From positions 1 through 24,247 of IMG/VR virus record IMGVR_UViG_3300020005_000025: 24,247 nucleotides of DNA. One strand, 5' to 3'. The DNA comes from a virus. How positions within the stretch are numbered: the stretch's first letter is position 1; the number at the start of each line of letters is the position of its first letter. The position numbers and the translations under genes were made by a program. The notes below the pieces were generated by a model. The model saw nothing but the letters and a program-made list of their open reading frames with translations. It searched no databases and had not been told where the DNA came from. Shown here piece after piece: positions 14,930 to 18,092 of this stretch.

Positions 14930-15247
14930 ATGCGACCGTCGCCGGGCGGGCGCGACGTCGTCGCGACGATCCTGGCGATCGGCATCGCGACGGCGATCAA
15001 TCTGATCATGGTCGCCGTACTGTGGGACGCGCTGCGCAGCGACACGCCCGGGCTATCCGAAAACGCGACGCAGGTCATCACCGCGCTCGGGTCGGGCATC
15101 ATCGGCGTGCTCGGCGGATACATCGGCGGGCGAGCCGCCGAGCAGGCGCAGCATCGGGCGCAGGAAGCGGCGGCGCCTCGTGACACGTCGGACACGGGTA
15201 GCGCGGCGGCGGACCGTCGAGGCGTCGCCCACACGTCGGACAGATAG
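14930..15247 (+). CDS. Two-helix membrane protein, probable holin
   Basis: The product is 105 residues starting two bases after the endolysin stop. Two hydrophobic helices are visible: residues ~9-32 (DVVATILAIGIATAINLIMVA) and ~46-68 (ATQVITALGSGIIGVLGGYIGG), with a short polar turn between them. A charged, Ala-rich cytoplasmic tail follows. Size, topology and place after the endolysin match class II-type holins, which time lysis by forming membrane lesions. Unlike its neighbours it uses CTG and AGC codons freely. About 149 bases of its 3' end are antisense to a zinc-ribbon gene on the other strand. Confidence 0.72.
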   Translation: MRPSPGGRDVVATILAIGIATAINLIMVAVLWDALRSDTPGLSENATQVITALGSGIIGVLGGYIGGRAAEQAQHRAQEAAAPRDTSDTGSAAADRRGVAHTSDR

Positions 15248-15266
15248 ACGGCGGTTCGTCAGCCAT
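15099..15266 (-). CDS. Short zinc-ribbon protein, antisense to the holin 3' end
   Basis: The product is 55 residues from the ATG at 15266, which overlaps the upstream gene's stop. It contains a clear zinc ribbon, CPTCGRR and then CPTCHEA (C9, C12, C25, C28), followed by a basic tail (RRLARRCIRRARR). The start carries a degenerate copy of the repeated element found at the start of the other genes of this leftward operon (MADEPPS versus MTDEPLF). It is the last gene of that operon and lies mostly opposite the holin-like gene. The two cysteine pairs make a chance frame unlikely. A nucleic-acid-binding role is possible but not shown. Confidence 0.6.
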   Translation of the reverse strand: MADEPPSICPTCGRRLDGPPPRYPCPTCHEAPPLPAPDAAPARRLARRCIRRARR

Positions 15267-15513
15267 CGGCCATCCCAACGGTGATGCGGATATCCAGCGT
15301 CACAGTCAGACCAAGCGCACGCATCTCACGGGTCATCGCGGCCAACCGTGCGAACACGTCCTCCGGCGAGCCGGGTTGGTCAATCCCCTCCACGATGATG
15401 AACGGCGGTTCAATGCCGGTCGCACGTGCGAATGGTTCCCACTCCGCGTCGGTCATGGGTACGGGATCGCGCATCGGGCTGTTGAACAGCGGTTCCATTC
15501 CCGGCTCAGGCAT
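15259..15513 (-). CDS. Hypothetical protein of the leftward operon
   Basis: The product is 84 residues from ATG 15513, overlapping the upstream stop by eight bases. The N-terminus is MPEPGMEPLFNSP, which contains the repeated EPLFN segment. The middle is acidic and aromatic (MTDAEWEPFARATGIEPPFIIVEGID). The C-terminal half looks like one alpha/beta unit (EDVFARLAAMTREMRALGLTVTLDIRITVGM). I recognise no family. Compared with the late genes it uses AGC, CTG and GTG more, suggesting a different origin. It is preceded and followed by short genes with the same start-associated repeat. Confidence 0.68.
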   Translation of the reverse strand: MPEPGMEPLFNSPMRDPVPMTDAEWEPFARATGIEPPFIIVEGIDQPGSPEDVFARLAAMTREMRALGLTVTLDIRITVGMADG

Positions 15514-15673
15514 CGCCCAACAGCTCCTCAATGCTCGGCCGTGGCGGCGCGTAGAAGACGGCGCGCCGGGTGGCGCGCTCGTCCTCGCTCACACGGGCGC
15601 ACCAGTAGGGCGCCAGCCATGCCGGGTAGCCAGCGAACGCGCATGCAATTGAACAGCGGTTCGTCAGTGCCAC
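15506..15673 (-). CDS. Short hypothetical protein, start or frame uncertain
   Basis: The best frame runs from GTG 15673, overlapping the stop of the upstream gene, to 15506, giving 55 residues. The protein looks real in its body (AGYPAWLAPYWCARVSEDERATRRAVFYAPPRPSIEELLGDA) and its end overlaps the next ATG. However, the repeated start element here is read in another frame. There, an ATG at 15680 gives MPSGTDEPLFN, matching the N-termini of neighbouring proteins, before the frame degenerates into Arg-rich sequence. Either the gene has suffered a one- or two-base indel near 15645-15660, or the element is conserved as DNA rather than as peptide. Confidence 0.5.
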   Translation of the reverse strand: MALTNRCSIACAFAGYPAWLAPYWCARVSEDERATRRAVFYAPPRPSIEELLGDA

Positions 15674-15828
15674 TCGGCATCGGGCACTCCGAGGTAATCC
15701 CCGATGTCATCGAGCATCGGAGCCAGTCCGGTCTCGCGTCGCTCGCTGGGCGCGAGGCAGTCGAGGCACGCTAGGTACAGCTTGGCGAGCGCGTCACGGT
15801 CGCTGTTGAACAGCGGTTCGTCAGTCAT
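15664..15828 (-). CDS. Short hypothetical protein with EPLFN N-terminus
   Basis: The product is 54 residues from ATG 15828, overlapping the upstream stop as ATGA. It begins MTDEPLFNSD and continues as a helix with two cysteines (ALAKLYLACLDCLAPSERRE) and an acidic C-terminus (MLDDIGDYLGVPDAEWH). The first ~20 coding bases contain the repeated element CTGACGAACCGCTGTTCAA. I recognise no domain. The size, acidic nature and place next to an Lsr2 homologue would fit a small regulator or interaction partner, but that is speculation. Confidence 0.6.
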   Translation of the reverse strand: MTDEPLFNSDRDALAKLYLACLDCLAPSERRETGLAPMLDDIGDYLGVPDAEWH

Positions 15829-16184
15829 CGCCGCGCCTTACGCCTCGACCGCCGCGGCGCGGCGACCTCGTCGAACAGACTGGCGACGTGGAGGCGCCGC
15901 CATTCCTGCGGCGCTAGTCGGTCGTCGCCGTGACGGGCGTATCCGTCGGGCTGTCGGTAGCGCGTGACGACCTCGCCCGAGCGCGTCACCCATCGGACCC
16001 GCTCCATCGCACACTCGCCGCACGTCGACGGTAGACCGACCATCCCCGTCGACATCCCATACGGGCGGGCGACCGGCGCGTCCGGGTCGTCGATCCCGAC
16101 CGGTCGCCCGTGGTGCCATTCGTGACCCATCGACCGACACAGTGCGAACCGGAGCACATCGTCGCCCGCTCCCGCATCCGTCAT
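15825..16184 (-). CDS. Actinophage-type zinc-binding hypothetical protein
   Basis: The product is 119 residues starting at ATG 16184, which overlaps the Lsr2 stop (ATGA). A split zinc site is visible: C16 with H21 in LCRSMGHEW and C55/C58 in STCGECAME. VRWVTRSGEVVTRYRQPDGY follows, a pattern I associate with small actinobacterial and actinophage zinc proteins of unknown function. The C-terminus has VASLFDEVA and then a strongly basic tail (RRSRRKARR) that could contact nucleic acid. Coupling to lsr2 suggests a shared regulatory role, but no function is established. Confidence 0.75.
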   Translation of the reverse strand: MTDAGAGDDVLRFALCRSMGHEWHHGRPVGIDDPDAPVARPYGMSTGMVGLPSTCGECAMERVRWVTRSGEVVTRYRQPDGYARHGDDRLAPQEWRRLHVASLFDEVAAPRRSRRKARR

Positions 16185-16513
16185 TTCGTCGCGTGGAAAT
16201 GCTCGAGGACCGCGTTCGGCACCCGACCTCGCGACGGGAGCGTGACGCCGTTCGTCTCCGCCCACTGGACGAGCTCGGCGCGGTCGTAGGCGAGCGCCGG
16301 CGGCGTCGAGGCGCGACGCTTTGGCTCCTTCCGAGTGACGACGTAATCGCCGGGCGAGCCTTTCGACCAGAAGGGCTCCAGCGCTTTCGCGAGGCGCACC
16401 GCCGACTTGTCCGCGAGGTCGACCTCGACGCCCTGTCCGTTCACGATGATGACGACGGTTGTCGCCTCCGGCTCGCCGGTCAAGTCGTCGGTACGGACCG
16501 TGTGCAGTGCCAT
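16181..16513 (-). CDS. lsr2: Lsr2-family nucleoid-associated protein
   Basis: The product is 110 residues. Lsr2 is the actinobacterial H-NS analogue: it bridges AT-rich DNA and silences foreign genes. The N-terminal dimerisation half shows strands TTVVIIVNGQGVEVDL followed by a helix (KSAVRLAKALEPFWSKG). The C-terminal DNA-binding half has AELVQWAETNGVTLPSRGRVP and ends in AVLEHFHATK; the RGR at 95-97 is the AT-hook-like motif. A clear GAGGAGAG ribosome binding site precedes ATG 16513. Actinophages often carry lsr2-like genes and are thought to use them in lysogeny or to counter host silencing. It heads the leftward operon, downstream of an operator-like region. Confidence 0.93.
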   Translation of the reverse strand: MALHTVRTDDLTGEPEATTVVIIVNGQGVEVDLADKSAVRLAKALEPFWSKGSPGDYVVTRKEPKRRASTPPALAYDRAELVQWAETNGVTLPSRGRVPNAVLEHFHATK

Positions 16514-16628: not shown

Positions 16629-16804
16629 GGTCCGAAAAAGGCCGCCACAGGTTGCCAAGGTGAGGGTCGCGGGTTCGAATCCCGTCGTCCGCTCCGAACG
16701 CCTGGTCACAGGCACTTTCTTACCTCTCTCCGGGGGCATCCGGGGTCCGAAAACCGCGAGTAGAGCCTCACCTAGGGCCGAAAACCTAGGTAGAGCCTCA
16801 CCTA
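16629..16804 (+). repeat. Candidate integrase arm-type and accessory sites around attP
   Basis: GGTCCGAAAA or GGGCCGAAAA occurs at 16629-16638 (left of the core), 16744-16753 and 16775-16784 (right of the core), all in one orientation. A second direct repeat, TAGAGCCTCACCTA, lies at 16761-16774 and 16791-16804 with exact 30-base spacing; its GAGCCTCACC core also occurs at 16540-16549. ACCTAGG/CCTAGGT (16771-16777 and 16785-16791) forms an inverted repeat. Arm-type sites for the integrase and binding sites for excisionase are expected on both sides of an attP core. The assignment of each repeat to a protein is inference. Confidence 0.55.
16652..16695 (+). other. attP: attP core: 3' half of a tRNA-Gly(GCC) gene
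   Basis: From 16652 the sequence reads as the anticodon loop (TTGCCAA with anticodon GCC at 16654-16656), the 3' anticodon stem, a variable loop, the T arm with GGGTTCGAATCCC, and the 3' acceptor strand ending CGTCCGCTCC at 16695. The bases 5' of the loop do not pair with the anticodon stem, so this is only a tRNA fragment. Integration here would restore the 3' end of a host tRNA-Gly(GCC) gene, as is usual for tyrosine integrases. Phage genes lie on both sides (lsr2 operon and integrase), so it is attP rather than a prophage end. Confidence 0.92.
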
Positions 16805-16818
16805 CCGAGAGGACCCAC

Positions 16819-17088
16819 ATGCCCACCATCCGACCACCCCGCACCCGGTTCGGGCGCGCCGTCGCCGTCGTCGCCGTGCTCTACGCCGTGTGGCTCGGGC
16901 TCGTCATCTACAACGGCGTCAACCGCACGACGCGCACCGTCGCTCGCGCCTACGGGATCGACTCGACCCGCTCGACGCCCGCCTCGGCGGGCGAGATCGT
17001 CGCCCGGGCGCTCGTCGGTCTCGCCGTCGCCGGCGTCGTGATCCTGATCGCGTGGATCGTCTGGCACGGTCGCGAGGACGCCCGATGA
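16819..17088 (+). CDS. Small two-helix membrane protein upstream of integrase
   Basis: The product is 89 residues from ATG 16819, with GAGAGGA at 16807-16813. A basic N-terminus (MPTIRPPRTRFGR) precedes a first hydrophobic helix (~13-33, AVAVVAVLYAVWLGLVIYNG). A polar loop and a second helix (~61-82, VARALVGLAVAGVVILIAWIV) follow, with the end probably on the cytoplasmic side. Its stop overlaps the integrase start (ATGA), so the two are co-transcribed and the protein is likely made in lysogens or on establishment of lysogeny. Small membrane proteins next to integrases are often superinfection-exclusion candidates. That is only a possibility here, and I recognise no family. Confidence 0.7.
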   Translation: MPTIRPPRTRFGRAVAVVAVLYAVWLGLVIYNGVNRTTRTVARAYGIDSTRSTPASAGEIVARALVGLAVAGVVILIAWIVWHGREDAR

Positions 17089-18092
17089 CCCGCGCCCCCG
17101 TCTCCGTCGCCGACCCCGAGCTCGCCGACTTCCTGGACGAGGTCCCGTGGTCGCCGGCGAACCGGGCGAACGCCCGATGCAACCTCGCCCGCGCCGAGCG
17201 CTGGCTCGCCGCCGAGGGCGTCGCCCCGCTGGAGGCGACCCACCGCCATCTCCGCGGCTACCTCGCCGCCCGCGAGGCGTCCGGCGTCGGCGGGTCGACC
17301 CGACATAAGGAGTGGCAACATCTCCAGGCGTTCTACGCGTGGGCGGCGCGCCCCGTCGTCGAGGGCGGCGCCGGCATCCTCGACACGAACCCGGCGCTCC
17401 GTGTCGGCGCCCCGGAGGTCCCCAAAGCGCCGCGGGTCCGTGTCGCCGAGGCGTCCGACGTCGCCGCCCTCCTCGACTACTTCGCCCGCACGGCGCGCCT
17501 GCGCCGCGGCGGCGGCGAGCGTGAACGGGCGCTGCGTAACTCGGCGATGGTCTCGCTCATGTTCCGCTCCGGGTGCCGCGTCGGCGAGCTCCCGTGGATC
17601 GACGTCGCCGACCTCGCCCGGGACCGCGCCGGCGAGCTCGTCGCCGTCCGGGTCGGCGGCGACGACGGGACCCACACGAAAGCCGGTAAGGGACGTCTCG
17701 TCCCGCTCGTCGACGAGACGCCGCGGGTCCTCGAGCGCTACCTCCGCGCCCGCGGCGACACGCCCGGTCCGCTATTCCTCGGACGCGAGGCGCACACCGC
17801 GGATCTCGGGCGGCGCCTCACGGTGCGGGCGATCCGCGACGTCGTCGAACGCGGCGCTCGGGCGGCGGGCGTCACCGTCTCCAGCCACGACCTCCGCCGC
17901 GGCTGGACGGTCGAGTCGCATCGCCGCGGCGTCGACGCGGTGTCGTTGCGCCTCGTCGGCGGGTGGACGTCGGACGACATGATCGTCCGCTACCTCGGAC
18001 CCGACGCACAAGCCCACGCCGTCGAGGCGTTCCGAGCGACCGTCGAGGGCTCTCGGATGGGCTCCCCGCGAAGCTACGCCGACGCTGGCTAA
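17085..18092 (+). CDS. int: Tyrosine-family site-specific integrase
   Basis: The product is 335 residues. It recombines attP with the host attB. The N-terminal SAM-like core-binding domain covers ~10-110 (WSPANRANARCNLARAERWL... HKEWQHLQAFYAWAARP). The catalytic domain carries R165 in GCRVGEL, a lysine in THTKAGKGRLVPL (K199/K202), H268 and R271 in SSHDLRRGW, W294 in GGW (the position often His), and the nucleophile Y303 in IVRYLG. The motifs are complete, so it should be active. It lies beside attP and shares an ATGA overlap with a membrane protein gene. A GC-rich inverted repeat (CACCC GGGC GGGTG, 18096-18109) follows the stop. Confidence 0.95.
   Translation: MTRAPVSVADPELADFLDEVPWSPANRANARCNLARAERWLAAEGVAPLEATHRHLRGYLAAREASGVGGSTRHKEWQHLQAFYAWAARPVVEGGAGILDTNPALRVGAPEVPKAPRVRVAEASDVAALLDYFARTARLRRGGGERERALRNSAMVSLMFRSGCRVGELPWIDVADLARDRAGELVAVRVGGDDGTHTKAGKGRLVPLVDETPRVLERYLRARGDTPGPLFLGREAHTADLGRRLTVRAIRDVVERGARAAGVTVSSHDLRRGWTVESHRRGVDAVSLRLVGGWTSDDMIVRYLGPDAQAHAVEAFRATVEGSRMGSPRSYADAG

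What the first reader, a model, noticed from the sequence alone, without database searches (positions are those of the whole stretch)
15246..15828. One DNA element repeated at the start of four consecutive leftward genes
ACTGACGAACCGCTGTTCAA or close variants sit 9-18 bases inside the starts at 15828, 15673, 15513 and 15266, always in the same orientation, with another dyad copy at 15400. GAAC-N4-GTTC is perfect in four copies. In the 15673 gene the element is read in a different frame, so the conserved feature may be DNA or RNA rather than peptide. It could be a binding site for a repressor (stoperator-like), a LexA-type site, a translation-control element, or a recombination seam by which the cassettes were assembled.
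Basis: partly seen in the sequence, partly recalled or inferred. Interest (0 to 1): 0.75.

Follow-up and report, generated by a model that had tools for sequence, protein, structure and literature searches.

The report
Frame-locked seam of phage gene cassettes
A short DNA sequence just inside the start of many unrelated small phage genes is the joint at which uncultivated phages swap those genes like interchangeable, frame-matched parts, which gives a rare direct look at how phage genomes become mosaics.

Summary
The element, here called E (consensus GAACCGCYGTYCRWYWSC on the gene strand), occurs five times between 15819 and 15240, including the internal copy at 15400, which is a genuine seam. 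At least 17 other IMG/VR phage contigs carry similar arrays (82 E sites scored). E lies in frame, usually 9 or 18 nt after the start codon, in front of unrelated bodies (dCMP deaminase, Dam methylase, unknown small proteins).

E is conserved as nucleotide sequence. Third codon positions are almost invariant, while second positions change the amino acid.

Phage G001 carries the window's cassettes A, B and C at 97.6-99.4% identity in another order (B-A-C against A-B-D-C). The breaks fall at E, and the rest of the two phages is at most 79% identical where alignable. Homologues of cassette enzymes outside the arrays lack E and begin about where E ends, so each cassette borrows the start codon carried by the tail of its neighbour. 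The 'different frame' at 15673 reflects a 41-bp deletion.

Best reading: E is the crossover seam of modular, frame-locked cassettes. How the strands are exchanged (short homology or a dedicated recombinase) is unresolved. Hairpin and LexA-operator readings fail, and a peptide-only reading is contradicted.

The parts
15802..15819 (-). E1, seam in front of cassette A
   Evidence: exact core; in frame 9 nt after ATG 15828
15645..15662 (-). E2, seam in front of cassette B'
   Evidence: exact core; 18 nt after ATG 15680 in the EPLFN frame
15478..15495 (-). E3, seam in front of cassette D
   Evidence: exact core; 18 nt after ATG 15513
15394..15411 (-). E4, seam inside the 15513 gene, between D and C
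   Evidence: PWM score 27.6; in G001 cassette C is joined here to A's tail; in L015 the 3' end of D is followed by another body
15240..15257 (-). E5, degenerate seam (GAACCGCCGTCTATC) at the 15266 gene
   Evidence: PWM score 19.2; C plus its tail is shared with G001 up to 9 nt into E
15663..15819 (-). cassette A: E1 + body (...SDRDALAKLYLACLD...AEWH) + stop + start region of the next gene
   Evidence: 98.8% identical to G001 40282-40451, in another order
15496..15662 (-). cassette B': E2 + body (...CAFAGYPAWLAPYWC...IEELLGDA); lacks 41 bp at about 15645 relative to G001
   Evidence: 99.4% identical over 168 bp; deletion shown by alignment
15412..15495 (-). cassette D, no stop: reads through E4 into C as one fused ORF
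   Evidence: 3' end similar to L015
15258..15411 (-). cassette C: E4 + body (VEGIDQPGSPEDVF...) + tail
   Evidence: 97.6% identical to G001 40439-40602
15099..15257 (-). last cassette body (ICPTCGRRLDG...), zinc-ribbon-like by eye
15825..16187 (-). gene directly upstream of the array, no E; overlaps the ATG of the 15828 gene
   Evidence: phrog_4480, unknown function
16181..16513 (-). Lsr2-like gene at the head of the leftward gene set
   Evidence: phrog_1223, E 3e-17
16652..16695 (+). tRNA 3'-end sequence, probable attP core
   Evidence: 44 bp identical next to the integrase of G001; nearly identical in G009
17085..18092 (+). tyrosine integrase
   Evidence: PF00589, phrog_1

Best explanation
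E is the crossover seam of a modular gene-cassette array in a group of uncultivated phages, probably phages of Actinomycetota. A cassette runs from one E to the next: E, a gene body without its own start codon, the stop codon, and then the ribosome-binding region, start codon and first few codons that serve the next cassette. E is read in the same phase in almost every gene (EP-L/P/Q-F/S...), so any cassette can be placed before or after any other and both junctions stay in frame. Exchange between cassettes occurs inside E, most likely in its first 7-10 bases (GAACCGCYGT), so arrays gain, lose and reorder genes. Shown here: the conserved motif, its phase, its conservation as nucleic acid, the reordered cassettes with breaks at E, and homologues without E. 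Inferred: that E itself promotes the exchange. Most likely this is homologous or annealing-type recombination between short shared seams by host or phage enzymes; a dedicated site-specific recombinase is possible but none was found.
For: 1) Window and contig G001 share A, B and C at 98.8, 99.4 and 97.6% in a different order (A-B-D-C against B-A-C). Shared blocks begin at E base 0 (A and C) and end 9-17 bases into the next E. Over the complete G001 record the rest of the two phages is at most 79% identical where alignable, apart from a 44-bp att core and one 34-bp E-and-start stretch. 2) Further cassettes in two contexts: G009/G013 share a block starting 4 nt before E with different upstream genes; G003b/G014; Dam cassettes of G003, G010 and L183. 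3) D's 3' end is followed by C in the window and by another body in L015. 4) 54 E matches in 15 records (G003 and G008 overlap in part), all on one strand per record, with 0 on the other strand and 0 for the reversed control pattern. 5) 64 of 69 E sites are in phase with a start codon upstream, against 27 and 4 in the other frames. 6) Bodies are unrelated apart from the shared cassettes listed. 7) Homologues outside arrays lack E and start about where it ends: M-IAALYV... against EPPF-IAALYV...; dCMP deaminase similar. 8) Conservation is of nucleotides: GAA in 77 of 79 Glu codons (background 26%), AAT in 20 of 28 Asn (6%), GAT in 21 of 21 Asp (23%). 9) Base 7 is largely uniform within a genome (concordance 0.86 against 0.46 shuffled, p about 5e-5) while bases 12-14 are not.
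Against: No recombinase is common to the contigs: tyrosine integrases in 9 of 15 but only 24-39% alike, resolvase in 2, RecT in 1; most contigs are fragments. A 10-14 bp seam is short for ordinary homologous recombination. Bases 11 and 17 are constrained while neighbouring bases vary, which pure homology does not explain and which hints at recognition by a protein or RNA. E copies are related by descent, so p-values that treat them as independent overstate the evidence. Only one pair of phages shows recent reordering at near identity. Metagenome assembly errors cannot be fully excluded, although repeats of 20-40 bp seldom cause them.
Confidence: 0.77

Rival explanations
1. Dedicated site-specific recombination: E is the core site of a phage or host recombinase (asymmetric centre CGCY flanked by GAAC and GTTC half-sites) that inserts, excises and reorders cassettes in an integron-like way.
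For: Breakpoints map within about E bases 0-9. Base 7, in the asymmetric centre, is the base that is most uniform within a genome (TTT.., CCC.., AAA in L183), as expected if partner sites must match in an overlap region. Conserved and free positions are interleaved. All E point the same way.
Against: No recombinase family is shared by the contigs. The outer arms are only weakly symmetric, and the right half-site is broken in about a third of copies. New cassettes must also acquire E in frame, which site-specific recombination does not explain by itself.
Confidence: 0.2
2. E is a regulatory element, either a repressor (stoperator-like) site or a translation-control element just after the start codon. 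It is kept for regulation, and the shuffling is a by-product of the repeated sequence.
For: Fixed position at gene starts, one orientation, constrained C at bases 11 and 17, conservation as nucleic acid. Cluster K SAS and other start-linked phage repeats show that such elements exist (PMC3203893, PMC7302621).
Against: E is absent from the structural genes and all other parts of the records searched. Regulation does not need the breakpoints to coincide with E, nor bodies without a start codon of their own.
Confidence: 0.17
3. Protein-level conservation: MxxEPLFN is a short N-terminal peptide signal shared by the small proteins.
For: E is in frame in 64 of 69 cases.
Against: The peptide varies (EPLFN, EPPSD, EPLTD, EPQSI, EPLDD) while synonymous positions do not. 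Homologues outside arrays lack it.
Confidence: 0.03
4. A LexA/SOS-type operator or a self-complementary hairpin is the conserved unit.
For: GAAC-N4-GTTC is perfect in 4 window copies and resembles Gram-positive SOS boxes (own knowledge).
Against: The N4 is fixed as CGCY/CGCA in nearly all copies, the GTTC half is lost in 28 of 82, and the arms do not covary (176 against 170 +/- 9 shuffled). Rfam finds nothing in the window.
Confidence: 0.03

Closest known systems
PeSL (promoter early stem-loop) cassettes of T4-type phages (Arbiol 2010; Comeau 2014, as cited in PMC4503421)
   Same: A short repeated element at module borders mediates gene shuffling between related phages in regions rich in small genes.
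   Different: PeSLs are promoter plus stem-loop elements; E lies inside the coding sequence, in frame, without a covarying stem.
Short conserved boundary sequences targeted by homologous recombination (model summarised in PMC3233612, from lambdoid and other phages)
   Same: Conserved border sequence where mosaic joints fall.
   Different: Here one border sequence is repeated at many joints of an array, is phase-locked inside ORFs, and is shared by at least 18 contigs.
Start Associated Sequences (SAS/ESAS) of Cluster K mycobacteriophages (PMC3203893) and similar repeats in Microbacterium phages (PMC7302621)
   Same: Asymmetric, one orientation, tied to starts of small genes of many families, consensus differs between phage groups.
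   Different: SAS lie upstream of the start codon at the ribosome-binding site, with sequence GGGATAGGAGCCC; no cassette reordering was reported in the passages read.
17-bp inverted repeat of Cluster O phages (PMC4351075)
   Same: Many copies per genome; GTTCGG/CCGAAC halves resemble part of E.
   Different: Symmetric, variable centre, not linked to start codons.
Integron gene cassettes
   Same: Array of promoterless small-gene cassettes, each carrying one recombination site, exchanged between elements (own knowledge).
   Different: E lacks the GTTRRRY core, is intragenic and non-hairpin, and no common integrase was found.

Membership tests
SAS of Cluster K | 13-bp GGGATAGGAGCCC immediately upstream of the start codon | tested here: not met
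   E is GAACCGCYGT..., usually 9-18 nt downstream of the start
SAS of Cluster K | one orientation, linked to starts of unrelated genes | tested here: met
PeSL cassettes | stem-loop in the repeated element | tested here: not met
   flanking arms do not covary
PeSL cassettes | early promoter in the repeated element | not tested
   no promoter scan was run; E lies inside coding sequence
Boundary-sequence-directed modular exchange | mosaic joints coincide with a conserved sequence | tested here: met
Boundary-sequence-directed modular exchange | exchange depends on homologous recombination enzymes | not testable with these tools
   needs an experiment
Integron cassettes | attC-type site with GTTRRRY core and folded arms | tested here: not met
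   consensus reads GTTC or GTCC on either strand; no arm covariation
Integron cassettes | dedicated tyrosine recombinase linked to the array | tested here: inconclusive
   integrases in 9 of 15 contigs, diverse, contigs partial
LexA/SOS box | two intact half-sites with free spacer | tested here: not met
   spacer fixed, right half-site broken in 28 of 82
Stoperator-type repressor sites | bound by the phage repressor | not testable with these tools
   needs a binding assay

The most novel reading that the evidence does not exclude
These phages carry a dedicated cassette-exchange system: an intragenic, frame-locked recombination site with genome-specific variants at its centre (CTG, CCG, CAG), recognised by a protein not yet identified. 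It would work like an integron but splice genes onto start codons supplied by their neighbours, and it could also fuse proteins through the site.
Probability: 0.2. Interest if true: 0.93.

Novelty: new variant of a known kind. Interest (0 to 1): 0.76.

Why it matters
How phage mosaicism arises is debated: recombination targeted to conserved borders, or random joints sorted by selection (PMC3233612). Here one border sequence recurs at dozens of joints, sits inside the genes, keeps reading phase, and separates cassettes that have visibly changed order between two phages sharing a tRNA attachment sequence. That makes targeted exchange directly testable. It also gives a DNA tag for finding the fast-exchanging accessory genes of uncultivated phages, most of them unknown.

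Tried and rejected
Hairpin/attC-like site: arms do not covary. LexA operator: fixed spacer and broken half-sites. Peptide signal: synonymous sites frozen, peptide varies. A shared recombinase: PF00589, PF00239 and PF03837 give no common candidate. Cultured phages: no array by DNA. Bacterial genomes: 13 scattered pattern hits, none in an array, and 0 of 396 Actinomycetota genomes with one stringent E pattern. First phage-relative search with the gene upstream of the array: nothing. Cassette B outside G001: nothing. Rfam: nothing in the window. A tRNA origin for E: some copies, with the ATGCCTGAGCCGGGAATS tail, have the geometry of the antisense of a tRNA 3' end, and one unbiased scan mainly found such antisense tRNAs. 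Only a minority of E sites look like this, so it is kept as a lead, not a conclusion.

Full report
WHAT IS THERE. The window is a complete IMG/VR virus record of 24,247 bp. It encodes terminase, portal, head protease, major head protein, endolysin and a tyrosine integrase. Between endolysin and integrase lies a leftward set: an Lsr2-like gene, a gene of unknown function, then small overlapping ORFs. The element in the finding is confirmed in three exact 14-bp copies and two variants. Numbering the first G of GAACCG as base 0, sites start at window positions 15819, 15662, 15495, 15411 and 15257 on the minus strand.

A FAMILY OF ARRAYS. A scan of viral contigs with the core gave 78 loci. Most are single chance matches, but a few had two copies 190-400 bp apart at gene starts. 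Further scans with start-codon context brought the set to 18 contigs and 82 scored sites. In the first 15 records the pattern has 54 matches, always on one strand per record, none on the other and none for the reversed control; two of these records, G003 and G008, share sequence. Consensus: GAACCGC-Y-GT-Y-C-R-W-Y-W-S-C. A caution: several sites were found with a weight matrix built from seed sites that already matched the core. The scan with every synonymous position left free avoids that bias and still returned only GAA CCG C-G TTC versions in arrays; its one other hit, an AT-rich contig (L132), is not an array.

ANATOMY. In 64 of 69 sites E is in phase with a start codon upstream (27 and 4 in the other two frames), most often 9 or 18 nt after it. 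The nearest stop codon upstream typically ends 1, 7 or 10 nt before E. So the stop of one gene overlaps the start of the next, and the start region belongs to the 3' tail of the preceding cassette. Bodies after E are unrelated apart from a few shared cassettes. They include a dCMP deaminase and two Dam-type methylases. In several places a cassette has no stop before the next E and reads through it in frame, giving fused ORFs, as for D-C in the window.

NUCLEIC-ACID CONSERVATION. Third codon positions of the first four codons vary in 0-5% of copies. The second position of codon 3 varies in 51% (Leu, Pro, Gln) and of codon 4 in 29%. Codon choice departs strongly from the contigs' own usage. This is the opposite of peptide-level conservation. 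The copies are related, so the binomial p-values are descriptive only.

REORDERED CASSETTES. Gene-strand order in the window is A-B'-D-C; in G001 (IMGVR 3300020005_000013) it is B-A-C. Identities are 98.8% (A), 99.4% (B) and 97.6% (C). A and C are shared from base 0 of their own E; A's tail is shared into the next E up to the first differing base, base 7, with a few matching bases beyond. Over all 43.8 kb of G001 no other stretch of more than 50 bp exceeds 79% identity, apart from a 44-bp tRNA 3' end next to each integrase; one 34-bp E-and-start stretch is 91%. G009 carries nearly the same tRNA end. These phages may therefore share a host tRNA target even though the window and G001 integrases gave no BLAST match. 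Older joints: G009 and G013 share a 75% identical block from 4 nt before E, with different upstream sequence, and D's 3' end meets a different body in L015.

HOW GENES ENTER. Homologues of the G009 enzyme in four other viral contigs and several cultured phages lack E. In three of the contigs and in Pseudomonas phage Persinger they begin M/V-I-A-A-L-Y/F-V, where array versions read EPPF-I-(S/A)-A-L-Y-V; a Caulobacter homologue instead has a short different leader before IAALFV. A cultured dCMP deaminase homologue starts within about one residue of the same place. E plus the borrowed start region thus takes the place of the native start codon.

MECHANISM. Breakpoints bracket the exchange to about E bases 0-9. 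Base 7 lies in that interval and is nearly uniform within a genome (all T, all C, or in L183 all A; concordance 0.86 against 0.46 shuffled), whereas bases 12-14 are not. That fits an exchange region in which partners should match. It fits homology-based exchange and site-specific exchange alike, and it also fits separate exchange pools by host. Interleaved constrained bases (11, 17) favour recognition by some factor. No common recombinase was found. I therefore commit to 'crossover seam of frame-locked cassettes' with the enzyme open, short homology being the default.

COMPARISON. The nearest precedents are PeSL-mediated shuffling in T4-type phages (cited in PMC4503421), the boundary-sequence model (PMC3233612) and start-linked repeats of Cluster K and Microbacterium phages (PMC3203893, PMC7302621). 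None of these as described is intragenic and phase-locked. No paper in the held library contains the core DNA sequence, and the three hits for the peptide strings were incidental by title. The held library lacks most subscription papers, so novelty is provisional.

Noticed in passing
window 16652-16695; L099 13682-13725; L114: The same tRNA 3'-end sequence (probable attP core) lies in three array phages (window, G001, G009); the window and G001 integrases gave no BLAST match. The 31-bp core is exact in 42 of 396 Actinomycetota genomes.
   Followed up: partly
W_3, G001_5, G004_3, G007_1, G012a_4, L187: The ATGCCTGAGCCGGGAATS-GAACCG version of the start region plus E has the geometry of the antisense of a tRNA 3' end, which could hint at an origin from an attachment core.
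   Followed up: partly
L183 10076, 10224, 10753: A third variant of E (GAACCGCAG) is used at all three sites of this contig.
   Followed up: yes
G012 (L104, L105) and G003 (L106, L107): Two separate arrays in one phage contig.
   Followed up: no
G003a_1 and G003b_4: Two cassettes share EPLFHSPVQSLDTD and then diverge into different bodies, so some exchange also happens downstream of E.
   Followed up: no
window 15412-15495 with 15258-15411; G010_1/2; G012a_2/3; G012b_1/2: In-frame protein fusions read through E.
   Followed up: partly
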